Assembly: GCA_028867335.1 (NCBI GenBank)
Contig: JAGWGN010000010.1
Coordinates: 1-39,152, forward strand
DNA from: Microcaldota archaeon
GTDB taxonomy: Archaea; Micrarchaeota; Micrarchaeia; Micrarchaeales; CABMGC01
Direction of reading: 5' to 3'
Length of the DNA: 39,152 nt
Made by a program: the position numbers and the translations under genes. Below, in pieces: positions 2,361 to 19,261 of the stretch; positions within the stretch are counted from its first letter, which is position 1; every line of letters begins with the position of its first letter. A model generated the notes under the pieces. That model saw only the letters and a list, made by a program, of their open reading frames with translations. It was not told the DNA's origin and made no database searches.

Positions 2361-2852
2361 TCATTCAGTCCTTAAATCGGTATTCAGATCATCTATTATC
2401 TCGGCAACTTTTCCCTTATCCTCAAGTGCTGACTTCTGGGCCTCTTTTTGTTCATTAGCATCTTGTTCAAAGCCAAGAATTTTCTTGACCTCCTCAGAGG
2501 CGTACTCCTTCTCGGTGTTGCCCTCCAGGTTCATTATACCGACCTCTGCGCCCCTTGAGAGAAGCATCCGGACTGCCGGGACATTATCAACCTTGGCTGC
2601 AATGATGAGCGGAGTGTTTCCTTGATCGTCACTGAGGCTAACGTCGGCCCCATTATCCAAAAGAAACTCGACCAGGGCCAATTTCTCCGCCACTGCGAGC
2701 AGGAGCGGAGTGACCCCCCTTTTTGTTTGGAAATTAATCTGCGCTCCGTTGGCAACTGCCCTGATTGCGGTGTTTTGGTCATTTAGGAGTACTGCACGGA
2801 GTAAGTCGTTTGTCTCGGCTTTCATTTTCGGCTTTCTATTGAATAGTCTCAT
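2361..2852 (-). CDS. ankyrin-repeat protein with conserved C-terminal tail
   Basis: Repeats such as GVTPLLLAVAEKLALVEFLLDNGADVSLSDDQGNTPLIIAAKVDNVPAVRMLLSRGAEV; tail KVAEIIDDLNTDLRTE. Confidence 0.9.
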   Translation of the reverse strand: MRLFNRKPKMKAETNDLLRAVLLNDQNTAIRAVANGAQINFQTKRGVTPLLLAVAEKLALVEFLLDNGADVSLSDDQGNTPLIIAAKVDNVPAVRMLLSRGAEVGIMNLEGNTEKEYASEEVKKILGFEQDANEQKEAQKSALEDKGKVAEIIDDLNTDLRTE

Positions 2853-2876
2853 CTTGATCGCTCATTATTTTGGCCA

Positions 2877-3683
2877 CTATTTCCTAAGGTCATCCTCCAG
2901 GGAGTCTATTATCTCATCCACGTTATGCTTTCTGAGGCTCTCAGATTCCAGTTTGGCACGCCTAGGTGCGTCCCTTAGCTCCCTTACGAATTTTTTCATG
3001 TATTCCGAAAAGTAGAAGTCATGTCTGCCCTGCGGGTTTAGTATCTCGCCCAAATCCGCGCCCTTCTCTGAGAGGAGCTTGACTGCCGTGATCATCTCGT
3101 TCTCAGCAGCCCAGATCAGCGCATTTCTATTATGGCCATCTCTTGCGTGAATGTCGGCGCCCTTATTCAAAAGAAGCTTGACCAGCTTCACATTCCCGGA
3201 TGACGCCGCGCGCATAAGTGGGGTTCTGCGTCCTGCATCATATGTGTTTACATCCGCGCCCCCATCAATTAGAATCTGTGCAAGCTCAAAGCGGGTGCGA
3301 ATTGCCTCAGACTTCTGTTCAAGTGGTTCCGCGCACAGCTGAAGCAGAACGGTGTAGCCTTCGGCGTCTTTTTTATCCACAGACGCACCGGAATTTATCA
3401 ATAGCTTTGCAACATCGACCGCCCCGCCCTGCACCGCCCGCATTAGTGGGGTCTGGTAGATTACATCGCTGAAGTTGGGGTCTGCGCCGTTTTTCAGAAG
3501 AATTGAGGCGATCTCCGCGTTTTTACTTTCCGCAGCGGCGATGAGGGGGGTTTGGCCTGAGTTCACGCGGCAGTCAATGTTAGCTCCATCCTCAAGTGCC
3601 CTGAAAAGACCTGAGACATTGCCCTGGGTAACTGCGCTTAGCAGCTTCTCATCTGCAATTTTGTTCTCCTTGTTCTTCTCCAT
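2877..3683 (-). CDS. ankyrin-repeat protein with conserved C-terminal tail
   Basis: Multiple ~33-aa ankyrin repeats (GQTPLIAAAESKNAEIASILLKNGADPN...); tail HNVDEIIDSLEDDLRK. Confidence 0.93.
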   Translation of the reverse strand: MEKNKENKIADEKLLSAVTQGNVSGLFRALEDGANIDCRVNSGQTPLIAAAESKNAEIASILLKNGADPNFSDVIYQTPLMRAVQGGAVDVAKLLINSGASVDKKDAEGYTVLLQLCAEPLEQKSEAIRTRFELAQILIDGGADVNTYDAGRRTPLMRAASSGNVKLVKLLLNKGADIHARDGHNRNALIWAAENEMITAVKLLSEKGADLGEILNPQGRHDFYFSEYMKKFVRELRDAPRRAKLESESLRKHNVDEIIDSLEDDLRK

Positions 3684-5378: not shown

Positions 5379-7190
5379 ATGGAACTAAACGAACTCGAGA
5401 CGCTGCTCGCATCACTTAAGGGTGAGGAGAACGCGTTCGCGCTCTACAACGGCAAGAAGAAGAGGGAGATACGGCAGATAGCAGAGCTCTTCCTTGCGAC
5501 GCGCGACTACAACATCGAGAAGCTCAACTCGATAATCAAAAACGTCTCCGGCATGGGGCCCAAGTCGAAGAGGGTCGTGAGCTTATACGGCGAGAAGGGG
5601 GTCGGGAAATCGACCGCGCTGAGCATCTTCTTGCTGGACAATCTGCTCAAGGGGAACATAGACGGCATAGTGTACTACAGGTACGACTCGAAGGCCGAGG
5701 AGTTCAAGGAGATATTCAACGTCAACGGGGAGGCGGGAGGGAAGGTTGTCGCGTGCGTCGACGACATGGCATACTACTCATCCGCGCTTGCGCAGGGCAG
5801 GGCGGTAGACCTCACAAAGGGCATCGAGGAGAGAGCGAGGATATATCGAAGCGGCGGGACACGGCTCTTCATCTACATCTCGGATCTCACCCATGCGACC
5901 TTCCTCTCTACACTTGAGACGAAGATACTCGAGAAGGTGGGCCGGGGGGATTTGGTGTATAGCATGCCGAAGATGTCTGTCGGCAGCTCAGGAGCAGGGA
6001 ACAAGGACGAGGTCACACTTGACAACAGCTTCTATGGAAAGACGTACGCGCTTCTAAAGGGGAACCTCGAGTTCTTTGGCCTGGGCGTGCTCTTTGGCGA
6101 ACTGATAAGGGAGAGCGAGAACGTCCTTGCCGACAACCCGAGGCTGCTCAAGTTCTTGATAAAGCAGATAGAGTCAAAGGGCGGCGACATAGACGGGGCG
6201 ATATTTGCCGACAAGGAGCTGGGCAAGCAGGTTCTCAGGTCAGGGCAGATAGACTCCGCAAAGGCGATAGAGCATTTCAATGAGCAGGCGCGCAAGGAGA
6301 TCGGCACATACTACAGGGGGCTTGCAGACCATGCACACGGCGTAGAGAACGAGCACAAGAAGATGATGGGGCTGCTGCTTGATCTGCAGGCGGACATAGC
6401 CAAGATAGCAAGCATCGACAAGAAGAAGCTTGAGGCGTATCCGTACCTAAGGGAGATGATCACAAAGGACTTTGCAGGGGCTGAGGAGAAGATTGGGCTG
6501 CTGAGGGACTCGATGCAGTCAAGCATGAAGGCACTGCGAGAGGAGCTCGCGCGCGTTCTGAAGTGCGAGGAGGAGAATCCCCTGTCCGGCAAGGCAGACA
6601 TATCGGAGCTGTGGAGCGTGCACGCAAAGGAGGCATATTTCTACTCGCAGAGGGTTAGGAAGCTGGTCGGCAAGATAGAAAAGCAGATCGACCTGCTCCT
6701 TGGATCAAGAGCATTCGCGCAGGGAGGGGCATACGACTCCGGTGGCCTCAAGGTGGCAGTGAGGGCGATGGCGATCTCCGTTGACAGGAGAAAGACCTCA
6801 GGGCTGCTCAGGCCGAACACTGATGAATACAAGATGGTCGACGACCTCTTCTACATCTCAAATGCGATGCTCAAGAACCTGAAGGAGACAGAGGGCCTTC
6901 TCGACTCTTATCGGATAGGCCGGCAGATAGAGGAGATGGTGGAGCAGACCGGACAGAACGCGATCGGCCCGATCCAGGAGAAGATCGGCTACTACAGGGA
7001 GCTCTCCGAGAAGAAGGCGGATCTGGCCAAGTTCAACGAGCTCTACTGCGACATACGGCTCAAGGCCTCGCTCTTTGTCGCCCAGAACCCTAGCGTCTTC
7101 TCGGGCATGGACGCTGGCAAAGTCGACCTTGAGAAGGTGTTCGAGAAGTTCATCAAGGCGAGGATACGATCGAAGAAGCCTGTTTACTAG
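5379..7190 (+). CDS. P-loop ATPase, AAA/STAND-like N-terminal NTPase domain with long helical C-terminal region, uncharacterised
   Basis: Walker A GEKGVGKST, candidate Walker B KVVACVDDM; ~300 aa helical/charged C-terminal part; upstream TATA-like cttataaatc near 5320. Confidence 0.8.
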   Translation: MELNELETLLASLKGEENAFALYNGKKKREIRQIAELFLATRDYNIEKLNSIIKNVSGMGPKSKRVVSLYGEKGVGKSTALSIFLLDNLLKGNIDGIVYYRYDSKAEEFKEIFNVNGEAGGKVVACVDDMAYYSSALAQGRAVDLTKGIEERARIYRSGGTRLFIYISDLTHATFLSTLETKILEKVGRGDLVYSMPKMSVGSSGAGNKDEVTLDNSFYGKTYALLKGNLEFFGLGVLFGELIRESENVLADNPRLLKFLIKQIESKGGDIDGAIFADKELGKQVLRSGQIDSAKAIEHFNEQARKEIGTYYRGLADHAHGVENEHKKMMGLLLDLQADIAKIASIDKKKLEAYPYLREMITKDFAGAEEKIGLLRDSMQSSMKALREELARVLKCEEENPLSGKADISELWSVHAKEAYFYSQRVRKLVGKIEKQIDLLLGSRAFAQGGAYDSGGLKVAVRAMAISVDRRKTSGLLRPNTDEYKMVDDLFYISNAMLKNLKETEGLLDSYRIGRQIEEMVEQTGQNAIGPIQEKIGYYRELSEKKADLAKFNELYCDIRLKASLFVAQNPSVFSGMDAGKVDLEKVFEKFIKARIRSKKPVY

Positions 7191-9013: not shown

Positions 9014-9412
9014 TCAGTATCCGCGGACCTGCCTTTTCAGGATCTCCTTGCCCTCTGCGGTCATATCCATCCTGTCTATTATCTCGGAGGCCTTGGTGAG
9101 ATACCTTAGGTGCGCGTCGCTTAGCATCTTCTCCAGCGCGAGAGCGTAGACCCTCGGCCTGTTCTGCTCTGGGTAGAAGATGCGGAGAACCGCGTATGCG
9201 GCCTCGCCGCTGCAATTCGCCTTGACCAGGTGTATCGCGCCCTTCTGGTTTGACCTCTCCTCAAGGCCGTCGTATCCCATCCCGAAAATATGCGATTCGA
9301 TGGTCCAGACCCTTCCCCTGTGCTCAAACTCCCTGAACTCAAATCCTGGAGTGTCCCTGAGAAGATCGCTTGTGTGCTCCCTCTCGCTCCGCACTCTCCA
9401 TCTTTCCTCCAT
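9014..9412 (-). CDS. uncharacterised family 'A' (A1), paralog of 9948-10349
   Basis: Shares FxHxGRxW, SKGA/QKGAIxLxxxxxxGExxYAVLRIxY and EKMLSDAxxRxxxKAxEIID with A2. Confidence 0.7.
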   Translation of the reverse strand: MEERWRVRSEREHTSDLLRDTPGFEFREFEHRGRVWTIESHIFGMGYDGLEERSNQKGAIHLVKANCSGEAAYAVLRIFYPEQNRPRVYALALEKMLSDAHLRYLTKASEIIDRMDMTAEGKEILKRQVRGY

Positions 9413-9429: not shown

Positions 9430-9939
9430 TCAGTATATCCTCGTGAAGTCCAGCTTGTATCCTCCCTCCAGGTCAACCGTGATTTTGCATTTGCCGAGCA
9501 TGGAGCTGTATTCGTATCGCAGCTCCCCTCCGTTCTTGGGCTCGTAGTCGAAGATCTCAAAGAGGGTGTTGTCGTTCGGGTTGGGCTTGAATGCTGAGAG
9601 GTATCCGATGATCTGCCTTAGCTCCTCCTTTAGCCGGACCGTCTCGGCACGCCTGTAGAAGTGCGATGCGTAGTCGCGTATGATCGCCTCGCTCTTGCCC
9701 GCCTTTATTATGAGGTTGGTCTCGTATCCGTTGTCGTAGAAGAACTTGAGCCGCTCGAAGTTTGAGATCTCGCCCGCGTAGGTGACAGCGGTCCACACAT
9801 GCATTGTCGCCATGACGTGGTAGGTTATCTCAGGGGGATTAGGGGTGAGCAGCTTGTTGTGCAGGCGGATCGCGTTCTTTGCGATGCTGTTTAGTCCAAA
9901 GTGGTCCGAATTCCCCATGCTTTTTGGATCGTGATACAT
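9430..9939 (-). CDS. uncharacterised family 'B' (B1), paralog of 17374-17913
   Basis: LNSIAKNAIRLHNKL...FYDNGYETNLIIKAGKSEAIIRDYASHFYRRA aligns with LNALAKNSMRSR...FYVLNGYNTNIRMQTKGSKAQTLVEFATNVFRGS of B2. Confidence 0.7.
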   Translation of the reverse strand: MYHDPKSMGNSDHFGLNSIAKNAIRLHNKLLTPNPPEITYHVMATMHVWTAVTYAGEISNFERLKFFYDNGYETNLIIKAGKSEAIIRDYASHFYRRAETVRLKEELRQIIGYLSAFKPNPNDNTLFEIFDYEPKNGGELRYEYSSMLGKCKITVDLEGGYKLDFTRIY

Positions 9940-9947
9940 CCTAAGAC

Positions 9948-10349
9948 CTAGTTTTCCCTCAGCTTCGCCTTAAGAAGCTGCTTGTCCTCATCCGATGCAT
10001 CGAACGTGTCTATTATCTCTATCGCCTTTGCCTGGAAGCGCATAGCCGCGTCGCTGAGCATCTTCTCCATCGCAATCACATACACCTTCGCCTGCTTCTC
10101 GTCAGTGTATAGGATCCGCAGGACTGCGTAGCCCGACTCGCCGTCGCTGCTAACCCTGTATATCCTAAGGGCGCCCTTCGAGGCAACTCCGGTCTCGAAC
10201 TTTCCCTCAGCGTAGACCATGCTGTCCACATACTCCGCTGTCTTCCAGATCCTGCCTTGATGGACAAACGGTTCCAGTTTGAGCTCGTAGATCCCCTTGC
10301 TGACAAAGCTCTCCCCGTCCTTTAGAAGGTCTTTTTTCTTAAAGAACAT
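9948..10349 (-). CDS. uncharacterised family 'A' (A2), paralog of 9014-9412
   Basis: FVHQGRIWKTAEYVDSMVY...SKGALRIYRVSSDGESGYAVLRILYTDEKQAKVYVIAMEKMLSDAAMRFQAKAIEIID. Confidence 0.7.
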   Translation of the reverse strand: MFFKKKDLLKDGESFVSKGIYELKLEPFVHQGRIWKTAEYVDSMVYAEGKFETGVASKGALRIYRVSSDGESGYAVLRILYTDEKQAKVYVIAMEKMLSDAAMRFQAKAIEIIDTFDASDEDKQLLKAKLREN

Positions 10350-10359
10350 CTTTGATCAC

Positions 10360-10695
10360 TTAGAGCTCAAGCTTCTTCACAGTCTCAAAGAAGTAGTATC
10401 CGGAGAAGAGCGTATTGGTGCGGCTATCGCCGACGCTCTTTGCATAGTTTGCAGCCTCAAGCGAGATTGCCACATGGTCGTCTAGCTTGCTCTGCTCGCT
10501 TTCCTTGCGCAGGCACCTGTCAAAGAGGAGAAGCACCTTTCCCTGGAGCTCGCGTATCTCTGGCGCCGTGAGGTCCTCTGTCCCGTGCTTCTCAAGGTTG
10601 TATCTTATGTTCCTTGCCGCCCCGACAAAGAGCCCCTTCGCCTCAAGTTCCTCCGAGTCCTTTAGATAATCCGCCTTTGTCCTTGCCTTTGCCAT
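10360..10695 (-). CDS. uncharacterised 111-aa protein 'C' in the A/B module
   Basis: ORF collinear with A/B genes; TATA-like element ctataaatag (10723-10732) upstream on the minus strand. Confidence 0.6.
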   Translation of the reverse strand: MAKARTKADYLKDSEELEAKGLFVGAARNIRYNLEKHGTEDLTAPEIRELQGKVLLLFDRCLRKESEQSKLDDHVAISLEAANYAKSVGDSRTNTLFSGYYFFETVKKLEL

Positions 10696-10722
10696 TTTAC
10701 CAATAGGAACTCTTGATTGGGG

Positions 10723-10732
10723 CTATAAATAG
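10723..10732 (-). promoter_or_regulatory. putative TATA box for the C-A2-B1-A1 module
   Basis: Minus strand CTATTTATAG, about 28 bp upstream of the ATG at 10695. Confidence 0.45.
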
Positions 10733-10748
10733 TTTATTCAGCGAGCGT

Positions 10749-11132
10749 TTACTTGCGCGCAATGTCCCGATTGAGATCATTTACTATCTCCTCGATCGAG
10801 TCCCTGCGCTCAATGCCCAGCTGCAGCCTTTGTGCGCGCTCGCACCTTTCGATCCACTCCGTGATTATGCCACTTGTTTTTTCCGTAGCGATCTCAAATG
10901 CGCTCTGCTTCTCCGGATTTTTCATCTTGTAGTCTGCGCCCTTCTCAAGCAGCAGCCTGGTGACCTCCTCATTCCCGGCAAGGCAGGAGTGCATTATTGC
11001 GGTCCAGCCGTCACTATCCCTCATGTTTATGTCCGCGCCGGAGGAAAGGGAGTCGTTTATCATCCCGATGTTGCCGAGCACCACCCCTACCCTAAGCGCC
11101 TCGTTCATATCGCCCTCTATCAGCTTTGTCAT
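10749..11132 (-). CDS. ankyrin-repeat protein, short, with C-terminal tail
   Basis: MRDSDGWTAIMHSCLAGNEEVTRLLLEKGADYKMKN; tail RRDSIEEIVNDLNRDIARK. Confidence 0.88.
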   Translation of the reverse strand: MTKLIEGDMNEALRVGVVLGNIGMINDSLSSGADINMRDSDGWTAIMHSCLAGNEEVTRLLLEKGADYKMKNPEKQSAFEIATEKTSGIITEWIERCERAQRLQLGIERRDSIEEIVNDLNRDIARK

Positions 11133-11134
11133 AT

Positions 11135-11746
11135 CTAATTACCCTCAAGCTCTCTTACTATCTCATCGACGGACTCCGCCCGGACTAACGCCGAGAGCTG
11201 CAGCCCCTTCGAGACAAGTCCGTTCTCCAGTTTTTTAAGCACTTGCATATATTCGTCTATCTCCGCCTTCATCTCTGGCGAGCCGGCGCAGTCGGAGGCA
11301 TTCGCCCCATTGGCGCTTTTTGCGTAGGGGTCTGCGCCCGCCCTTATCAGAAGCCTCACTGCCCCAATGTTGTCCTTGTATGCGGAGTGCATCATTGCAC
11401 TCATTCCCGTCTCGTCCCTTGCGTCTTTGTCGGAGCCCCACTTGAGCAAAAGGTCGAGGGACCTTGTGGAATTCGTGCGCGCGGCAAGTATCAGTGCCGT
11501 TGAACCTAAAGAGTCCTTTAACTCTAGGCTTGCCCCTTTTTTAATTAGCAGCTCCACGATCTCCTCGCGGTCATAGTAAGCGGCACTCATTAGCGCCGTA
11601 GTCCGGCCCATACTCTCCGGCCTTCTTGCGTCTATGTCTGCGCCCATCGCAAGCTCCCTTTTCACGGCGTCCACATTTGCTCCAGCTGCCGCGCCGATGA
11701 GCCTCTGGTTAGCCGCTTCCAGATCCGCATTTTTGAGTTTTGCCAT
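11135..11746 (-). CDS. ankyrin-repeat protein, tail truncated
   Basis: GRTTALMSAAYYDREEIVELLIKKGASLELKDSLGSTALILAARTN...; ends RAESVDEIVRELEGN. Confidence 0.9.
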   Translation of the reverse strand: MAKLKNADLEAANQRLIGAAAGANVDAVKRELAMGADIDARRPESMGRTTALMSAAYYDREEIVELLIKKGASLELKDSLGSTALILAARTNSTRSLDLLLKWGSDKDARDETGMSAMMHSAYKDNIGAVRLLIRAGADPYAKSANGANASDCAGSPEMKAEIDEYMQVLKKLENGLVSKGLQLSALVRAESVDEIVRELEGN

Positions 11747-11752
11747 AAACAA

Positions 11753-11854
11753 TCACGTCCTTCGCAAATCTTTCTCAAGATCCTCGATGTCGCCCCTGTA
11801 GGCTGAGATAAAGAGCTTCTCGTTTGCAGCCTTGTTAACCCTGATTTTTTCCAT
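11753..11854 (-). CDS. 33-aa mini-ORF: ankyrin-family N-terminal cap joined directly to the C-terminal tail (internally deleted paralog or tail-only peptide)
   Basis: Translation MEKIRVNKAANEKLFISAYRGDIEDLEKDLRRT; compare N-terminus MEKNKENKIADEKLLSAVTQGN and tail EIIDSLEDDLRK of 2877-3683; not in the supplied ORF track because it is short. Confidence 0.55.
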   Translation of the reverse strand: MEKIRVNKAANEKLFISAYRGDIEDLEKDLRRT

Positions 11855-11861
11855 ATGTCGT

Positions 11862-12746
11862 CTATCCCCTTAGGTCTTCCTTTAATTCGCCTAGTATCTC
11901 CTCTATGGAGTCGGCGCGCTCAATCGACCTCCTTTGATCTTCTTCTTTAAGCATCTCGTGGAGGAACTCTCTTTGCTGCACCGTGATTGACGAGGTGTCC
12001 ACAGGTGAATCTGGATCTAGTAACTCCCTTGCATTTGCGCCACTGCTGTAGAGAAGGCGGACGCAGTCCATATGGCCAGCCTCTGTAGCCCAGGCTATCG
12101 CCGTCTTCCCGTCTTTGTCCCTGGCAAATACATCGGCACCGCTTTCAAGGAGCTTCGTTATTATCAGTTTGTTCCCTTTATCCGCTGCATACATAAGCGC
12201 AGTCAGCCCGAACCTGTTTTTTGAGTTGAGCCTTGCGCCCTTCTTTATAAGCAATCCTAGGGTGTCGTGGTGATCCCCGGAGAGGCCTGCGACCTCCATT
12301 AGGGGGGTCTCTGCGAGATCGCCGCGCCCGTTCACGTTTGCGCCGTAGCACTCGACGAGCATCTCGGCGATCTTGAAATCGCGCCTGTATATAGCTACGG
12401 AAAGCGCGGAGACCAGCTTATTGTCCCTCAGATTCACATCCGCCCCGTTCTGCAGAAGCACCCTTGTGCATTCGGGATATCCCCCCTGCACTGCAAAGAT
12501 GAGCGCGGTGTCCCCGCGATCTGGGCTTTTTATGTTGGGATTCGCCCCGTTTTTCAAAAGCAGGGAGACGCCGGTCGGAAAGCCCTCTCTTGCCACGATC
12601 ATAAGCGCGTTCATGCGATTATCGCCGATAGAATCTACCTGAGCTCCTTCCTTGAGCGCATTCGCCATTCCCTCAAGGTCAGTGACCAAGGCTGTGCTGT
12701 GCAGCCTGCCGTTTTTCTCTTTTTGGTCGATCCTGATCTTTTCCAT
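11862..12746 (-). CDS. ankyrin-repeat protein with conserved C-terminal tail
   Basis: At least six ankyrin repeats; tail ERADSIEEILGELKEDLRG. Confidence 0.93.
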   Translation of the reverse strand: MEKIRIDQKEKNGRLHSTALVTDLEGMANALKEGAQVDSIGDNRMNALMIVAREGFPTGVSLLLKNGANPNIKSPDRGDTALIFAVQGGYPECTRVLLQNGADVNLRDNKLVSALSVAIYRRDFKIAEMLVECYGANVNGRGDLAETPLMEVAGLSGDHHDTLGLLIKKGARLNSKNRFGLTALMYAADKGNKLIITKLLESGADVFARDKDGKTAIAWATEAGHMDCVRLLYSSGANARELLDPDSPVDTSSITVQQREFLHEMLKEEDQRRSIERADSIEEILGELKEDLRG

Positions 12747-12749
12747 GCT

Positions 12750-13352
12750 CTATCCCTTACGGTTGTCTTTCTTGTCTCGCTCGAGCTCATCGAGTATCTC
12801 CTCGATTGCACCTGACCTTACAAGCGCCATTTTCTGCCGCTGCTCCTGGCTTGGATCCCGTGGCCTGAGCAGGGCGGTGATGAACCTTGGGCTGACGGCA
12901 TAGTTTTCCGCCCTCTTTCCCTCGACATTTATTAGGTTGATGTCGGCGCCCGCCTCGATCAGGGCAATTGCAGAGTGAAGTTTTGCAGCAATAAAGGCGT
13001 GCATCAGAGGGGTGAATCCGCGGTTGTCCCTTGCATCCTTCTCTGCGCCCTTCTCCAAGAGAAGCTTGGTGATGGCGGCACTGCTTCCCATTGCGGAAAA
13101 CATCAGGGGAGTGAATCCCTCTTCGTCCCTTACGTTCACTTTTGCCCCGTTTCGGAGAAGCAATCGGGTTATTCCAAGGTGGCCCTTGGAGGCAGCAAAC
13201 ATCAAAGGGGTCTGATCATGGATTTGAATGTAGTTAACATCTGCACCTTTCTCGAGCGCCACCTTTGCCATCGTCAGGTTACCAGTCTGCGCAGCCATCA
13301 GGAGTTTGCGGCTCGAATTAAGTTTTGTAATTTCCGATGTTTTGGTTTTCAT
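12750..13352 (-). CDS. ankyrin-repeat protein with C-terminal tail; near-paralog of 13357-13947
   Basis: DQTPLMFAASKGHLGITRLLLRNGAKVNVRDEEGFTPLMFSAMGSSAAITKLLLEKGAEKDARDNRGFTPLMHAF; tail SGAIEEILDELERDKKDNRKG. Confidence 0.93.
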   Translation of the reverse strand: MKTKTSEITKLNSSRKLLMAAQTGNLTMAKVALEKGADVNYIQIHDQTPLMFAASKGHLGITRLLLRNGAKVNVRDEEGFTPLMFSAMGSSAAITKLLLEKGAEKDARDNRGFTPLMHAFIAAKLHSAIALIEAGADINLINVEGKRAENYAVSPRFITALLRPRDPSQEQRQKMALVRSGAIEEILDELERDKKDNRKG

Positions 13353-13356
13353 ACCG

Positions 13357-13947
13357 TCACTTTCTCAGGTCCTTTTCAAGACCGTCTATTATCTCGCTTA
13401 CCGCGTTCGCCCTGTCGATTGACTCCTTCTGTGAATCTTCCAAAATCGCGTTTGAATGGTCTAACAGCGAAAAGTAGAATGCCGGGGTCGGGGAGTAATA
13501 CATCGCGTTTCTTCCCTCCTTAGTTGTGGCATTTAGATCCGCACCTGCCCTGATTATGGCCATTGCCGAGCGGCGTCTTGAGTTAATTATTGCATGCATG
13601 AGTGGGGTCAGCCCTATATTGTCCGTTTCGTTGACGTTTGCGCCCTTCTCCAAAAGCAGCTCGGTCATCTGCGCTCTTGATCCCATAGCAGCAAACATCA
13701 GTGGAGTGAGGCCGTCTATGTTCATTGCCTCTATGTCTGCCCCTTTTTCAAGTAGCAGACGCGCAATTTTAAGAGGGCCCTTCGATGCGGCAAACATCAG
13801 TGGGGTTTGTCCCTCCTTATCGGCGCACTCGATGTTTGCCCCTTTTTTAATCGCCTCGAGAACAAGCGAGCTGTCTTTGGCTAGAACTCCGTCCATCAAA
13901 AGCTTGTTTGCCTTCTGCTTACCGATAATCCTTTCCATTTTTATCAT
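13357..13947 (-). CDS. ankyrin-repeat protein with C-terminal tail; near-paralog of 12750-13352
   Basis: GQTPLMFAASKGPLKIARLLLEKGADIEAMNIDGLTPLMFAAMGSRAQMTELLLEKGANVNETDNIGLTPLMHAI; tail RANAVSEIIDGLEKDLRK. Confidence 0.93.
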   Translation of the reverse strand: MIKMERIIGKQKANKLLMDGVLAKDSSLVLEAIKKGANIECADKEGQTPLMFAASKGPLKIARLLLEKGADIEAMNIDGLTPLMFAAMGSRAQMTELLLEKGANVNETDNIGLTPLMHAIINSRRRSAMAIIRAGADLNATTKEGRNAMYYSPTPAFYFSLLDHSNAILEDSQKESIDRANAVSEIIDGLEKDLRK

Positions 13948-14514
13948 CTACTCGCCAAGGTCCTTTTCAAGACCCGCTATTATTTCGGTGACGACATCCT
14001 TCCTTAGAAGTGCCTTTTCCTGTATTTTTTTCTCCGCTTTTCGCTTCTTTTTTATACGCAGCTGCATTTTTTCGTATTTTGCGATTAGATCGAAATACGG
14101 ACGCTGATGCCAAAATACTATGTCCAAAGCATAGTCTTTCACAACATTTCCCTGCCTGTCCTTTATGCCGACATCTGCGCCATACTTGAGGAGAAGTTCC
14201 ATTGTCTCAAAATTCTCCTGCTCTGTGGCATGCATCAGGGCGGTCTTCCCGTCCTTGTCTTTCGTGTTGGGATTTGCGCCTGCTTCCAAAAGCAGCCTTA
14301 GAATCTCAGCATTAGATTCACGCGAAATTGCGATCATAAGTAGAGTTTTTTTGTCTTCGGTACACACATTTACATCTGCGCCTTTCTTTATCAAAGTGGC
14401 TACAATTCTGGGATTGTCATTCATCTCATCCAGGCTTTTCTGGAGAGAAAAACTGGATAGCAGCTCATCGGTGGCTTGCGTTCTAATTGTGTTTGAAGTT
14501 TTGAGTGTTTTCAT
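13948..14514 (-). CDS. ankyrin-repeat protein with C-terminal tail
   Basis: LRLLLEAGANPNTKDKDGKTALMHATEQENFETMELLLKYGADVGIKD; tail RKDVVTEIIAGLEKDLGE. Confidence 0.92.
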   Translation of the reverse strand: MKTLKTSNTIRTQATDELLSSFSLQKSLDEMNDNPRIVATLIKKGADVNVCTEDKKTLLMIAISRESNAEILRLLLEAGANPNTKDKDGKTALMHATEQENFETMELLLKYGADVGIKDRQGNVVKDYALDIVFWHQRPYFDLIAKYEKMQLRIKKKRKAEKKIQEKALLRKDVVTEIIAGLEKDLGE

Positions 14515-14567
14515 GGACTTGCCTATTTTTCATACCTTCCGCTAACAGTATAATTAAGCGTTTTTGG

Positions 14568-14575
14568 TATATAAA
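14568..14575 (-). promoter_or_regulatory. putative TATA box of an internal promoter in the ankyrin array
   Basis: Minus strand GTTTATATACC about 55 bp upstream of the ATG at 14514, in the longest intergenic gap of the array (14515-14647). Confidence 0.5.
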
Positions 14576-14647
14576 CAGGGGTAAAAATAGCAGAATAGTG
14601 AGTATTTATTGTTGCTTTGTGAAGGGTGCTCTAGGGGTAAATGGCCC

Positions 14648-15241
14648 CTATTTTGGATCAAGATCACTGTTTAGGCCCTTTATAATATCGTCTACCGCAG
14701 CAACCCGGTCGAGATTGTCCCGCTGACCCTTTAGAAGCCTCAGGCTTGAGGTGTACTGATTGAGCTGCTGAAGCTCATTTGACTTGCCAAGCTGCACCAT
14801 CTTTTTTGCCAGGCTCTCGGGGACCGTGGGGTCCGCCCCTTTGTCTAGCAGGTACTGCGCAATCTGGGCACTCTTTGGATTTCGGATAGCATGCATCAGG
14901 GCGCTGTAGCCGTCTAGGTCAACCTGGTTGATTAGCGCGCCCTTCCCGAGAAGAAACTCGACCATCCTAAAATTGCAGCTCTCTGCTGCGCGCATAAGCG
15001 GCGTGAGCCCGTGTTCGTCGGCAGCGTTTACGTTTGCGCCCCTGCTGATCAGCAGCTCCGCGATCTGGGTTCCGCTCTTGTCATAGGCAGAGCTCATAAG
15101 TGCGGTGCGGCCCGCAAAGTCCTGTGCATTCACGTCCGCGCCGTTTTTAATCGCGGTGCGCACAAGTTTGTAATCGAAGTGAACTGCGGAGCTGAGCAGA
15201 AGGTTGTCCAGCGAATCGTTTTTGCTCCTTGTCTTCTCCAT
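14648..15241 (-). CDS. ankyrin-repeat protein with C-terminal tail
   Basis: GRTALMSSAYDKSGTQIAELLISRGANVNAADEHGLTPLMRAAESCNFRMVEFLLGKGALIN; tail RVAAVDDIIKGLNSDLDPK. Confidence 0.93.
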   Translation of the reverse strand: MEKTRSKNDSLDNLLLSSAVHFDYKLVRTAIKNGADVNAQDFAGRTALMSSAYDKSGTQIAELLISRGANVNAADEHGLTPLMRAAESCNFRMVEFLLGKGALINQVDLDGYSALMHAIRNPKSAQIAQYLLDKGADPTVPESLAKKMVQLGKSNELQQLNQYTSSLRLLKGQRDNLDRVAAVDDIIKGLNSDLDPK

Positions 15242-15249
15242 CCCATAGC

Positions 15250-15738
15250 CTATTTTTCAAGATCCCTAAGTATCTCCTGCACCTTGTCCGCCTTTCCAAT
15301 CGCTCGCTGTTGCTCCCGTCTTGAGTTGATTAGCTCCTGGAACTCGTCAAGCATCTGCTTTGACTCCTTTGTGATTGCATAGTAGACCGCAGTCTTCCCG
15401 ATGGAATCATTTAGTTCTATGTCAGCCTCGTTCTCAAGCAGAAACCGGATAGAGTTGTTCATACCGTGCTTTGCAGCAATGATAAGGGCAGTATCGCCTT
15501 CCTTGTTCTTGATATTCGGATCTGCCCCATGCTTCAGGAGAAACTCCACCATCCCGCTTCCCTTCTGGGCGCAGAGCATAAGCGGGGTCTCCCCCCTCTC
15601 GTTTGTGACGTTCATGTTCGCCCCGTCAGTGTAGGCCTTCCAGAGAAGCTTGAAATCATTTTTCGAAACCGCCTTCCAGAGCTTGAGGGTCGCCTCGTGC
15701 TTCTTCTCCTCTCCCTCTGGCTTCTTGAAAATTCCCAT
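15250..15738 (-). CDS. ankyrin-repeat protein, tail shortened; near-paralog of 15740-16285
   Basis: MGIFKKPEG...ATLKLWKAVSKNDFKLLWKAYTDGANMNVTNERGETPLMLCAQ; tail GKADKVQEILRDLEK. Confidence 0.9.
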   Translation of the reverse strand: MGIFKKPEGEEKKHEATLKLWKAVSKNDFKLLWKAYTDGANMNVTNERGETPLMLCAQKGSGMVEFLLKHGADPNIKNKEGDTALIIAAKHGMNNSIRFLLENEADIELNDSIGKTAVYYAITKESKQMLDEFQELINSRREQQRAIGKADKVQEILRDLEK

Positions 15739-15739
15739 C

Positions 15740-16285
15740 TCAATCGTCCTGCACATCCTCGCTTAGTCCCCTGACTATCTCATCCACGCCCTCTTTTTTC
15801 TCGACAGCAAGGCTCTGCGAGCGCCTTAATTCTGTTAGGCCGGAGAACTCGTCAAGCACATCCCTCACCTCCTTGGTTAGCGCCTGGTCTCTTGCGCTCT
15901 GGCCGTAGCCGTCTACGATATCTTGGCTTGCGCCCGCGGCGAGCAGGATTCTTAGGACCTCAATCCTCTGATGCATAAGTATCATGTTTGTGGCCTCAAG
16001 AGCGATCATCAGCGCAGTGCGCCCGTTCCCGTTTATCCTATCCGGTTCTGCTCCCCTCTCAAGCAGGATGTTGACAAGCTCGGGGGAAACCCTGGCCGAC
16101 CCCATTAGCGGGGTTTCGCCCAGATTACTCTTGGCCTCTATCTCGGCGCCCGCATTGATCGCGTCTGACATCATATATGGATCGTTTTTCTTGATTGCCT
16201 TCCAGAGCTTGACGTTCGCATTGTGCATTTTCGCATCTGCCAGCGCGCCTGTTGCAAGCCCTCTTAATCCGCGAAACAGTCCCAT
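15740..16285 (-). CDS. ankyrin-repeat protein with C-terminal tail; near-paralog of 15250-15738
   Basis: MGLFRGLRG...NVKLWKAIKKNDPYMMSDAINAGAEIEAKSNLGETPLMGSARVSPELVNILLERGAEPD; tail KKEGVDEIVRGLSEDVQDD. Confidence 0.9.
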   Translation of the reverse strand: MGLFRGLRGLATGALADAKMHNANVKLWKAIKKNDPYMMSDAINAGAEIEAKSNLGETPLMGSARVSPELVNILLERGAEPDRINGNGRTALMIALEATNMILMHQRIEVLRILLAAGASQDIVDGYGQSARDQALTKEVRDVLDEFSGLTELRRSQSLAVEKKEGVDEIVRGLSEDVQDD

Positions 16286-16286
16286 C

Positions 16287-16772
16287 TCAATCCCCCTTCC
16301 TCAGGTCGCCTTCGAGGTCGCCTATTATCTCATCGACTCCCTCTTTGCGCTTCACGCTGCCCAGCTGCCTTGCCGCAACTATCGAATCGATGAGCTTGGA
16401 TGCGTATCCGTTTAGGGAGGCATAGTGCCTCGCATCCTTGCCCTCGCCATCTCTCTTTGTTATGTCCGCCCCCGCCTCAAGGAGCATGATCACTATGTCA
16501 TCAAATCCCCTCAAGGCCGCAACCATGAGCGGAGTGCGGCCATTTGTGGTTGGCGCGTCAACCTTGGCGCCAGCCTTTAGCAGAATCTGGACGGTGCTTA
16601 CCCTTGCCTGTCCTGCCGCAATGAACAGAGGAGTCAGGCCCCTTGAATTTCTCGCCTCTATGTCGACTCCCCTCTTTATGGCAGAGCGCAGCATGGCATT
16701 GTTCCCCCACTCTGCGTCGAAGAACAGCCTCTCAAGCTGATTTTCCCTGTTCCTGACTCTTGCAGTCTTCAT
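16287..16772 (-). CDS. ankyrin-repeat protein with C-terminal tail
   Basis: GLTPLFIAAGQARVSTVQILLKAGAKVDAPTTNGRTPLMVAALRGFDDIVIMLLEAGADI; tail KRKEGVDEIIGDLEGDLRKGD; ATGA overlap with 16769-17368. Confidence 0.92.
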   Translation of the reverse strand: MKTARVRNRENQLERLFFDAEWGNNAMLRSAIKRGVDIEARNSRGLTPLFIAAGQARVSTVQILLKAGAKVDAPTTNGRTPLMVAALRGFDDIVIMLLEAGADITKRDGEGKDARHYASLNGYASKLIDSIVAARQLGSVKRKEGVDEIIGDLEGDLRKGD

Positions 16773-17368
16773 TCTTCCACCTGCTTTCTTATGTCGCTCT
16801 CAAGCGACTCTATTATCTGTGAAACCCCGTCCTTTCTTTTCAGCTCTCCTAGCTGCCTCGCTGCTTTATCCTGATCTTCATAGAACTTTTCGGGGTACTT
16901 TAATATAAGATGCTTTATCCTCTTGTCGTCTGTAAGATCGAATGCCTTTGAGTTCTTGCTGTTTTCGATGCCCGGGTCCGCGCCGCTCTCAAGCAGCAGC
17001 TTCACAAGCTCAAGGCTTCCGGTGCTGGCGGCGAGCATGAGCGGAGTCCAGCCGTGATCCGACTTTGCGTTTAGGTCTGCGCCCCTTGCAATCAGCAGCC
17101 TTGCAAGAGCCGCATCCGCTCTCTGCGCTGCAAAGGCAAGAGGAGTCCACCCGTACTTGTTTTTGGGATCGACCCTCACCCCCTCATCCAAAAGCAGATT
17201 CGCAAGTTCTGTGTGTCCCTTGTTTGCTGCATTCAGAAGCCTGAGCTCGGCGAAGTCGCCTCTTGGATCCATAGCATTCTCCCGTATTGCCTGAGCGACA
17301 ACCTTTGCGTTTCCCGTCTCAAGTGCCCAGAAGAGCTTCTTTTGGTCAAACTTGTTTTTTGCCAGCAT
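16769..17368 (-). CDS. ankyrin-repeat protein with C-terminal tail
   Basis: GWTPLAFAAQRADAALARLLIARGADLNAKSDHGWTPLMLAASTGSLELVKLLLESGADPGIEN; tail KRKDGVSQIIESLESDIRKQVEE; start reset to MLAKNKFDQ. Confidence 0.92.
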   Translation of the reverse strand: MLAKNKFDQKKLFWALETGNAKVVAQAIRENAMDPRGDFAELRLLNAANKGHTELANLLLDEGVRVDPKNKYGWTPLAFAAQRADAALARLLIARGADLNAKSDHGWTPLMLAASTGSLELVKLLLESGADPGIENSKNSKAFDLTDDKRIKHLILKYPEKFYEDQDKAARQLGELKRKDGVSQIIESLESDIRKQVEE

Positions 17369-17373
17369 TCCAC

Positions 17374-17913
17374 CTACCTGCCCTGCCCTTCTGCCGGGCC
17401 GTCTAGTGACTCGCCGATCAGCAGCTCTTGTCCCTCTATTGAGATGCTGCACAGATACGACCCTATCGTGTAGAGGCTCTGCGCCTTGAACATCTTGTCC
17501 CTCGGGTCGGGATCGATTCTGAAGAGGGGGTTTATCCCGTCAGAGATGCGCACGTTTTCGGAGAGGTACTTTGCGATCTCCCCAGACGCTTCCTTGAATT
17601 TATGGTCGCTGCTGCCCCTGAAGACATTCGTCGCAAACTCGACTAGGGTCTGCGCCTTGCTGCCCTTTGTCTGCATCCGGATGTTCGTGTTGTAGCCGTT
17701 TAAGACGTAGAACTCCACGTGGGGCAGCTTTGCATCCATTATCGCATACCACATCACAAGCGAGGAGAGCGCGTCGTAGAAGCGGTCGTCTATTGGCCGA
17801 AAGCGGTTTAGCCCCTCGGACGTGCTGAACCTTGAGCGCATTGAGTTTTTTGCAAGCGCATTGAGGGCCGACTTTGGGGAGTCCTCCTCCCTTCTCTCGA
17901 AGACAATAGGCAT
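17374..17913 (-). CDS. uncharacterised family 'B' (B2), paralog of 9430-9939
   Basis: See B1; upstream palindromic TATA-like TTTATAAA at 17941-17948. Confidence 0.7.
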   Translation of the reverse strand: MPIVFERREEDSPKSALNALAKNSMRSRFSTSEGLNRFRPIDDRFYDALSSLVMWYAIMDAKLPHVEFYVLNGYNTNIRMQTKGSKAQTLVEFATNVFRGSSDHKFKEASGEIAKYLSENVRISDGINPLFRIDPDPRDKMFKAQSLYTIGSYLCSISIEGQELLIGESLDGPAEGQGR

Positions 17914-18079
17914 TGTATCAGAAGGGAATCTGCCTGACGTTTTATAAACTTAACTTATCAGTTTGTTTATCGGACCAGAAGCGTCGAACAAAATCCCCTG
18001 GGCGGCAGGCGCTCTCGCGGGCGCCCTGCTCGCCAGAAAATCCTTAAATAAATATGCTTCTAATCTTCAACTGAGTGAA

Positions 18080-18415
18080 GTGGAGGACCTAGACAACGCA
18101 ATGGAAGTCCAGGAGGCCTACGAGGCGCGAGAGCGCGGGGAGCACGTTAGGCGCGACAACGGCCACACAAAGGCGCATGTGGGCGTGGTGGAGCACTTCT
18201 TCGACAAGATAGACGTGGTTGCGATAAAGCTAAGCGGTCCGCTCAAAGTGGGCGACATAATAGAGATAGGGGATGAGGAGAACGCAGTCCGACAGAAGAT
18301 AACCAGCATGCAGATAGACCGCGAGGACGTCGGGCATGCAGGCGAGGGGGACTCGATAGGAATAAAGCTGGCACACAAGGTCTCGCCTGGCAGCAGGGTC
18401 TACAGGCTCAAGTAG
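18080..18415 (+). CDS. EF-Tu domain-2-like (translation-factor beta-barrel) small protein
   Basis: HVGVVEHFFDKIDVVAIKLSGPLKVGDIIEIG...QKITSMQIDREDVGHAGEGDSIGIKLAHKVSPGSRVYRL; TATA-like ttaaataaata at 18044-18054 argues for GTG at 18080 or ATG at 18101 rather than the longer ORF. Confidence 0.7.
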   Translation: MEDLDNAMEVQEAYEARERGEHVRRDNGHTKAHVGVVEHFFDKIDVVAIKLSGPLKVGDIIEIGDEENAVRQKITSMQIDREDVGHAGEGDSIGIKLAHKVSPGSRVYRLK

Positions 18416-18463
18416 CTGGTTCTTTTCCATTAGGTCAGTTTCTGCAGGGCATGAAGGGAGCCA

Positions 18464-19261
18464 TCAGTACAAAAATTCCTCGCCAGTTTCTGCCCCCCTT
18501 AATGCTGCGATCACATCCTCCTTTCCCCACCTGATTATCCTTCCCCGATACTTCTCTGAGAGCGGGGCGAGCGTCTCATCCCCCGTCCCCCAGAATTTTG
18601 ACATGCTGAACCTCTCATCGCCCTCCACGTGGACTCCCAAAAGCGCCTTCCCTCCATGGAGGAGGGGATGGTAGCTTACTACCATCTCCCTTGGGCCCTC
18701 GCCAGTCGCTTTCTCCCCCACGTACTTGAAGCGTATTATCGCGGCACCGTCATTTAGCATCTGCGCAATCTGGCCGAAAGGGTTTCCGAATGGGTAGCTG
18801 GCCGAAACACTATCCTCGCGGAATATCCTCTCTATGTTGCAGTACATCTTCATGTAGATCCTGATCTCGAGCATGTCCTCGAGCAGCGCAGACTCCTTAT
18901 CCTTGTCATCGCCTATCGTCGCCCTTGGATGCAGCGAGTCGTTTAGGGCGGTAAGCAGCGTGAAGTGCAGGCTTGAGAGCCTGCCTGAGATCGCAGGGCT
19001 TAGTGAAATCCGTCTTTTCCCCATGAACTCCTCTGCGATCGCATCCGGCGCGGCAAGAGCCCTGCACAGCCTTGGGATGTCGAACTCCGACTCATGCCCC
19101 CTTAGGTAGAATCCTATCGCTGTGCTGAGCTCGCCCTTCAATCGGTTTAGAGTCGGAACTGAGGAGTTGAGCTCCTCAAGAGTTCTAAGCCTGTATGCCT
19201 CATTGGGGTTGAAGAGGTCGAATAGGTTTTGCGCGCTCTTTGCGGGCTTTGCTTTCCACAT
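18464..19261 (-). CDS. hypothetical protein, 265 aa
   Basis: ORF with its own TATA-like element on the minus strand (GGGATATAAAG near 19290-19300). Confidence 0.6.
   Translation of the reverse strand: MWKAKPAKSAQNLFDLFNPNEAYRLRTLEELNSSVPTLNRLKGELSTAIGFYLRGHESEFDIPRLCRALAAPDAIAEEFMGKRRISLSPAISGRLSSLHFTLLTALNDSLHPRATIGDDKDKESALLEDMLEIRIYMKMYCNIERIFREDSVSASYPFGNPFGQIAQMLNDGAAIIRFKYVGEKATGEGPREMVVSYHPLLHGGKALLGVHVEGDERFSMSKFWGTGDETLAPLSEKYRGRIIRWGKEDVIAALRGAETGEEFLY

What the first reader, a model, noticed from the sequence alone, without database searches (positions are those of the whole stretch)
11753..11854. 33-aa mini-gene consisting of ankyrin N-cap plus tail with no repeats
MEKIRVNKAANEKLFISAYRGDIEDLEKDLRRT joins an N-terminal cap like that of 2877-3683 (MEKNKENKIADEKLLSAVTQGN) straight to the tail (I.DLEKDLR). 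It keeps ATG, frame and stop and sits a few bp upstream of the next array gene. Either homologous recombination between repeats looped out the whole ankyrin domain, or it is a tail-only competitor/regulatory peptide.
Basis: partly seen in the sequence, partly recalled or inferred. Interest (0 to 1): 0.66.

Follow-up and report, generated by a model that had tools for sequence, protein, structure and literature searches.

The report
Collapsed ankyrin gene: N-cap plus tail
In a small archaeon's row of ankyrin-repeat genes, one 33-codon gene keeps only the beginning and the very end of a normal member, most likely because an in-frame deletion removed the middle; it is a real and unusual fossil, but nothing yet shows that its short protein does anything.

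Summary
The ORF is real: ATG to TGA, 33 aa, minus strand. It has its own slot in a tight ankyrin array, 7 nt after one gene and 6 nt before the next ATG. I first suspected that its C-terminal half was simply the second helix of the N-terminal cap. Profiles from 22 sibling N-caps and 23 sibling tails rejected that. A chimera joined after ...YRGD|IEDLEKDLRRT scores 33 bits against 11 for a pure N-cap (gain 22.5; real N-caps gain at most 3.9). The observation therefore stands. The proposed mechanism does not quite fit. The junction lies in N-cap helix 2/tail, not between ankyrin repeats, so a short-homology in-frame deletion fits better than repeat-to-repeat recombination. The peptide also lost the tail's invariant Ile and its preceding half, which argues, weakly, against a tail competitor. 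Best reading: a recent collapse remnant, perhaps still translated. Along the way I found that the tail is private to this genome (27 matches at E<=1e-4; none in 300 other genomes of the phylum). In a confident model it is the end of a 41-residue C-terminal helix. It also ends one non-ankyrin protein and a frame-broken tail-only relic. It looks like a portable C-terminal tag, partner unknown.

The parts
11753..11854 (-). 33-aa mini-ORF, ATG to TGA: zero-repeat N-cap/tail fusion
   Evidence: unique best small ORF on both profiles
11789..11854 (-). N-cap part, codons 1-22 (MEKIRVNKAANEKLFISAYRGD): leader plus first cap helix
11753..11788 (-). Tail part, codons 23-33 plus stop (IEDLEKDLRRT*)
   Evidence: 19.2-19.6 bits under tail profile; breakpoint optimum lies exactly here; closest tails C3_18535 (8/9 aa) and 13357-13947 (7/9 aa, 19/27 nt)
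11866..11871 (-). AAGGGG, Shine-Dalgarno-like site of the mini-ORF, inside the last codons of the upstream gene
   Evidence: duplex energy -6.2 kcal/mol with anti-SD; 16S 3' end GATCACCTC found in this genome
11752..11761 (-). AGGACGTGAT, Shine-Dalgarno-like site of the downstream gene, which dictates the mini-ORF's last codons (AGG ACG TGA)
   Evidence: duplex energy -9.7 kcal/mol
11862..12746 (-). upstream ankyrin array gene (294 aa), also starts MEKIR and ends ...EDLRG*
   Evidence: Pfam Ank_2 1.6e-45
11135..11746 (-). downstream ankyrin array gene (203 aa), in frame with the mini-ORF across one TGA
   Evidence: Pfam Ank_2 1e-22
13360..13434 (-). reference tail (DSQKESIDRANAVSEIIDGLEKDLRK) of gene 13357-13947
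   Evidence: profile hit 3.9e-10; distal end of a confident 41-residue helix in the model
2880..2951 (-). tail of gene 2877-3683, the sibling whose N-cap is most like the mini-ORF
   Evidence: profile hit 1.5e-8

Best explanation
The mini-ORF is the collapsed remnant of an ordinary member of this ankyrin array. An ancestral gene (N-cap, several ankyrin repeats, linker, C-terminal tail helix) suffered one in-frame deletion that started just after the first cap helix and ended inside the tail (shown by profiles; the ancestor itself is not seen). The likely substrate is a short similarity between cap helix 2 (I/V-x-x-L) and the tail (I-x-x-L), for example the GGTCTT found in sibling caps and tails; this step is inferred. 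The deletion spared the start signal at the end of the upstream gene and the downstream gene's ribosome-binding site, which lies in the mini-ORF's own last codons, so the array is probably still read through (inferred). The event is recent or the remnant is constrained, because neither half shows decay. The peptide may be made, but the simplest view is that it has no selected role beyond keeping the array's translation spacing.
For: Sharp breakpoint optimum: chimera 30.5 bits, pure N-cap 9.7, pure tail 8.7; recomputed 33.2 against 10.7, gain 22.5, maximum 3.9 among real N-caps. No genuine helix 2 in 383 segments resembles the tail as closely. A second relic exists in the same genome: at the end of contig C17 an intact tail is followed by a frame-broken, bodyless tail (RTERIDEILDLLRGDLRV*) with no start codon in frame, so genes of this family do collapse. 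Array genes vary from about 127 to 294 aa and pack with gaps of a few bases, so loss of repeats is ordinary. Neutral simulation: ORF intact in 33% of runs at 5% divergence, 12% at 10%, with falling scores, so a remnant this clean must be young or constrained.
Against: No intact ancestor or strain without the deletion is available: the four same-genus genomes lack the tail and give at most weak, general ankyrin matches. The mini-ORF keeps a usable start signal and both halves look fresh, which a conserved function would also explain. The Ile codon at the junction is ATC, whereas tails nearly always use ATA, so the exact junction is uncertain by one or two codons.
Confidence: 0.7

Rival explanations
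1. It is a functional microprotein: a repeat-less decoy that docks on the same partner as the full-length proteins' tails and competes with them.
For: Frame, start signal and tail core (I-x-x-L-E-x-D-L-R) intact. The tail is a shared module that also occurs on a non-ankyrin protein (C54 31770-32459...SKVNEIIEGLESDLRK*), so a common partner is plausible.
Against: The invariant Ile at tail position -4 (23/23 siblings) is Asp here and the preceding V and basic segment are gone. One instance only; none in the 39-gene array of a relative, whose smallest unit is 134 aa. No ortholog to show selection.
Confidence: 0.12
2. It is a short leader cistron kept for its position: its translation and TGA couple ribosomes onto the downstream gene, whose Shine-Dalgarno lies in the mini-ORF's final codons; the peptide sequence is irrelevant.
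For: AGGACGTGAT, duplex -9.7 kcal/mol, among the strongest in the array, overlaps the last codons and stop of the mini-ORF, 6 nt before ATG.
Against: Several other array genes are packed in the same way without a mini-ORF, and protein-level resemblance to cap and tail would then be needless, though it could simply be inherited.
Confidence: 0.1
3. No tail at all: the ORF is a natural N-cap, both helices, cut off by a stop just before the first loop, and the likeness to the tail is chance.
For: Spacing is canonical: T33 sits where the G of the first GA loop would be, and GDIE is typical ankyrin (seen directly in the sibling alignment).
Against: Helix-2 part scores -5.3 bits as N-cap, lowest of 22, and 19.6 as tail; best of 383 genuine helix-2 segments reaches 9.0. 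Chimera gain 22.5 against at most 3.9.
Confidence: 0.05
4. Assembly artefact: reads from two array genes were joined wrongly in a metagenome-derived genome.
For: Fragmented genome (61 contigs, 82.7% complete), array contigs such as C20 and C3 end inside or next to ankyrin genes.
Against: Longest exact match of the surrounding 210 bases elsewhere in the own-genome stretches examined is 14 nt, and not at the junction. No direct repeat family listed covers the mini-ORF.
Confidence: 0.03

Closest known systems
Ankyrin-repeat proteins (Pfam PF00023/PF12796)
   Same: The first 22 residues match the N-cap of sibling ankyrin proteins, and the neighbours on both sides are clear ankyrin proteins.
   Different: The mini-ORF holds no repeat and matches no Pfam family.
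Poxvirus ANK/F-box (PRANC) proteins (PMC4353913, PMC9414399)
   Same: Same general plan for the full-length siblings: a multigene family with variable ankyrin repeats and one constant C-terminal box.
   Different: No PRANC or F-box match in the mini-ORF or the four full-length siblings scanned; the tail is a helix end private to one archaeal genome; the mini-ORF lacks the ankyrin part altogether. Analogy of layout only.
Deletion remnants in tandem gene arrays (general class, own knowledge)
   Same: Short leftover with the two ends of a sibling gene, in the slot of a full gene, with a second decayed relic elsewhere in the genome.
   Different: Unusual in being in frame with start, stop and start signal preserved.

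Membership tests
Ankyrin-repeat protein | at least one complete ~33-residue ankyrin repeat | tested here: not met
   no Pfam match for the 33-aa protein at 0.01; no residues for a loop or second helix of a repeat
Ankyrin-repeat protein | N-terminal cap helix like that of sibling proteins | tested here: met
   13.0 bits, siblings -0.2 to 15.1 left-one-out
This genome's constant-tail family | tail core I-x-x-L-[EN]-x-D-[hydrophobic] | tested here: met
   19.2-19.6 bits; L(0) and D(+3) present
This genome's constant-tail family | invariant Ile at -4 and V/I/L at -7 with basic segment before it | tested here: not met
   Asp at -4 against Ile in 23/23; upstream half absent
ANK/F-box (PRANC) proteins | PRANC or F-box domain at the C-terminus | tested here: not met
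   Pfam scan of the mini-ORF (nothing) and four full-length siblings (only ankyrin families)
Functional small protein | reading frame conserved across genomes with synonymous excess | tested here: inconclusive
   no relative with the tail among 97 relatives or the 300 other genomes of the phylum searched, so nothing to compare
Functional small protein | translated in the cell | not testable with these tools
   no expression data; start signal only moderately supportive
Deletion remnant | intact ancestor or undeleted strain known | tested here: inconclusive
   no near relative carries this array

The most novel reading that the evidence does not exclude
The genome uses a private C-terminal helix tag, on about 27 ankyrin proteins and at least one unrelated protein, to bring variable binding domains to one common partner. 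The mini-ORF is a domain-free bearer of that tag that tunes or blocks the docking site.
Probability: 0.08. Interest if true: 0.75.

Novelty: new member of a known kind. Interest (0 to 1): 0.36.

Why it matters
By itself the mini-ORF is a snapshot of how members of a fast-changing tandem array are lost: whole binding domain removed, frame and neighbouring start signals spared. It drew attention to a more interesting object, a C-terminal helix shared by about 27 otherwise divergent ankyrin proteins and one non-ankyrin protein in a single small archaeal genome and absent from all relatives searched. If that tail is a docking or address tag, the array would be a repertoire of interchangeable binders on one adaptor, and the mini-ORF a natural zero-repeat control for experiments.

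Tried and rejected
(1) My first idea, that the C-terminal half is simply cap helix 2, was rejected by profiles. (2) Pfam match for the mini-ORF: none. (3) Intact version in relatives: the four same-genus genomes and 93 further relatives lack the tail; 301 genomes of the phylum, own genome included, give the tail only in the own genome at 1e-4. (4) Viral contigs with a sibling protein: nothing; genome contigs with the downstream protein: only a Rickettsiales ankyrin. (5) RNA families in 10000-18500: none. (6) Zero-repeat genes in the independent array of G058: none, smallest 134 aa. (7) Model of the non-ankyrin tail protein: pLDDT 33, not used. (8) The gap 14515-14647 and the C59 gap hold no cap or tail remnant. 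(9) Structure search of a sibling finds designed and natural ankyrins only, no lead on the tail helix. (10) Literature: no paper on such arrays in small archaea found in six searches.

Full report
What is there. The ORF at 11753-11854 on the minus strand reads MEKIRVNKAANEKLFISAYRGDIEDLEKDLRRT*. It lies in a run of ankyrin genes on the minus strand (10749-17452, with two more at 2361-3683). The gene upstream of it ends at 11862 and the gene downstream starts with ATG at 11746. The mini-ORF is in frame with the downstream gene and only its TGA separates them from a possible TTG start at 11752.

Is the N-cap-plus-tail reading real? I doubted it at first, because AYRGDIEDLEKDLRRT also looks like the helix-turn-helix of an ankyrin cap, with the stop falling where the first GA loop should begin. 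To test this I collected the siblings from the window and from contigs C20, C3 and C59 and built profiles for cap and tail. The first half of the mini-ORF scores 13.0 bits as a cap helix 1, within the upper range of its siblings. The second half scores -5.3 bits as cap helix 2, the lowest of all 22, but 19.6 bits as tail, and none of 383 genuine helix-2 segments from this and related genomes exceeds 9.0. A scan of the breakpoint peaks sharply after ...YRGD, at 30.5 bits against 9.7 for pure cap and 8.7 for pure tail. A repeat with a slightly different tail profile gives 33.2 against 10.7, a gain of 22.5 bits, whereas real caps gain at most 3.9. Among 1,299 small ORFs in all frames of the own-genome stretches it ranks first on both scores.

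What the tail is. In siblings the tail reads roughly R..L.RK..[VI][DE][ED]I[IV]..L[EN].D[LIV]RK at the extreme C-terminus. The Ile at -4 and the Asp at +3 are invariant in 23 tails, while the Leu codons are fully mixed, so the protein sequence is what is conserved. A confident model of gene 13357-13947 (pLDDT 96.9, 22 sequences) shows an ankyrin stack followed by one helix from residue 155 to 195, and the tail is its distal end. The tail is private to this genome: 27 matches at E <= 1e-4 here, none in the other 300 genomes of the phylum; in the first search of 97 relatives the best other score was 0.006. It also ends a 230-aa protein without ankyrin repeats on C54 (31770-32459...PRSKVNEIIEGLESDLRK*), for which no relative was found. 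The tail therefore behaves like a portable C-terminal tag. Its partner is unknown.

How the mini-ORF arose. The most economical account is a single in-frame deletion from the cap into the tail of one gene, or across neighbouring genes. Recombination between ankyrin repeats, as first proposed, would delete whole repeats and leave a hybrid repeat, which is not what is seen. A second collapse remnant exists at the end of contig C17, where an intact tail is followed by a bodyless, frame-broken tail, so such losses happen in this family. An assembly artefact is unlikely, because the longest exact match of the surrounding 210 bases elsewhere in the stretches examined is 14 nt and does not lie at the junction.

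Does it do anything? It has a start signal in the upstream gene's last codons (AAGGGG, -6.2 kcal/mol), and its own last codons carry the downstream gene's Shine-Dalgarno (AGGACGTGAT, -9.7). As a caution, a third of random ATGs in the window have a duplex at or below -5 kcal/mol, so the mini-ORF's own signal is weak evidence. Neutral simulation says a frame this clean would survive 5% divergence one time in three and 10% one time in eight, with falling resemblance; so it is young or constrained, and without orthologs these cannot be told apart. Against a competitor role, the peptide lost the invariant Ile and the upstream half of the tail, and no like gene occurs in the independent 39-gene array of G058. 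I put 0.7 on a collapse remnant without a selected peptide role, 0.12 on a functional decoy and 0.1 on a leader role.

Known context. The layout of the full-length siblings resembles poxvirus ANK/F-box (PRANC) proteins (PMC4353913, PMC9414399), variable ankyrins with a constant C-terminal box, but the mini-ORF and the four siblings scanned show no such domain, so this is analogy only. Six literature searches found no description of such arrays in small archaea.

Noticed in passing
L061 5768-6460 (-), G000:C54:31770-32459: A 230-aa protein with no ankyrin repeats ends in the same tail (SKVNEIIEGLESDLRK*), so the tail is portable; no relative in 97 genomes and no confident model.
   Followed up: partly
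L060 about 6010-6226 (-), end of contig C17: An ankyrin-gene tail cut by the contig end, followed by a second tail (RTERIDEILDLLRGDLRV*) with no body, a stop in frame before it and no start: a decayed relic.
   Followed up: partly
window tails and C20, C3, C59, C54 tails: The Ile codons of the tail's EII are ATA in 39 of 42 cases against 105 of 273 in gene bodies (Fisher p 7e-12), although Leu codons beside them are fully mixed: a codon- or nucleic-acid-level constraint without explanation.
   Followed up: partly
L024-L026, G058:C1:689425-723757: A relative in another family has about 39 tandem ankyrin genes, nearly all overlapping the next by exactly 11 nt, with a different constant tail (LKPGIRSILRTGQEYNAARHGVSYAV) whose end contains the next start codon.
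   Followed up: partly
L030, L039 (G037, G043): Other relatives' ankyrin clusters carry their own shared tails (RGGVRGVKLREGFAKIHKK; KNQLKTEFSNVLRR), suggesting that a constant tail per array is a recurrent design.
   Followed up: no
window 9014-9412 and 9948-10349; 9430-9939 and 17374-17913: Two pairs of mutually similar small proteins (by eye) flank the ankyrin array; none has a Pfam match.
   Followed up: no
window 14515-14647: The only sizeable gap (133 nt) inside the main array, AT-rich, without cap or tail remnant; possibly a promoter or terminator region.
   Followed up: no
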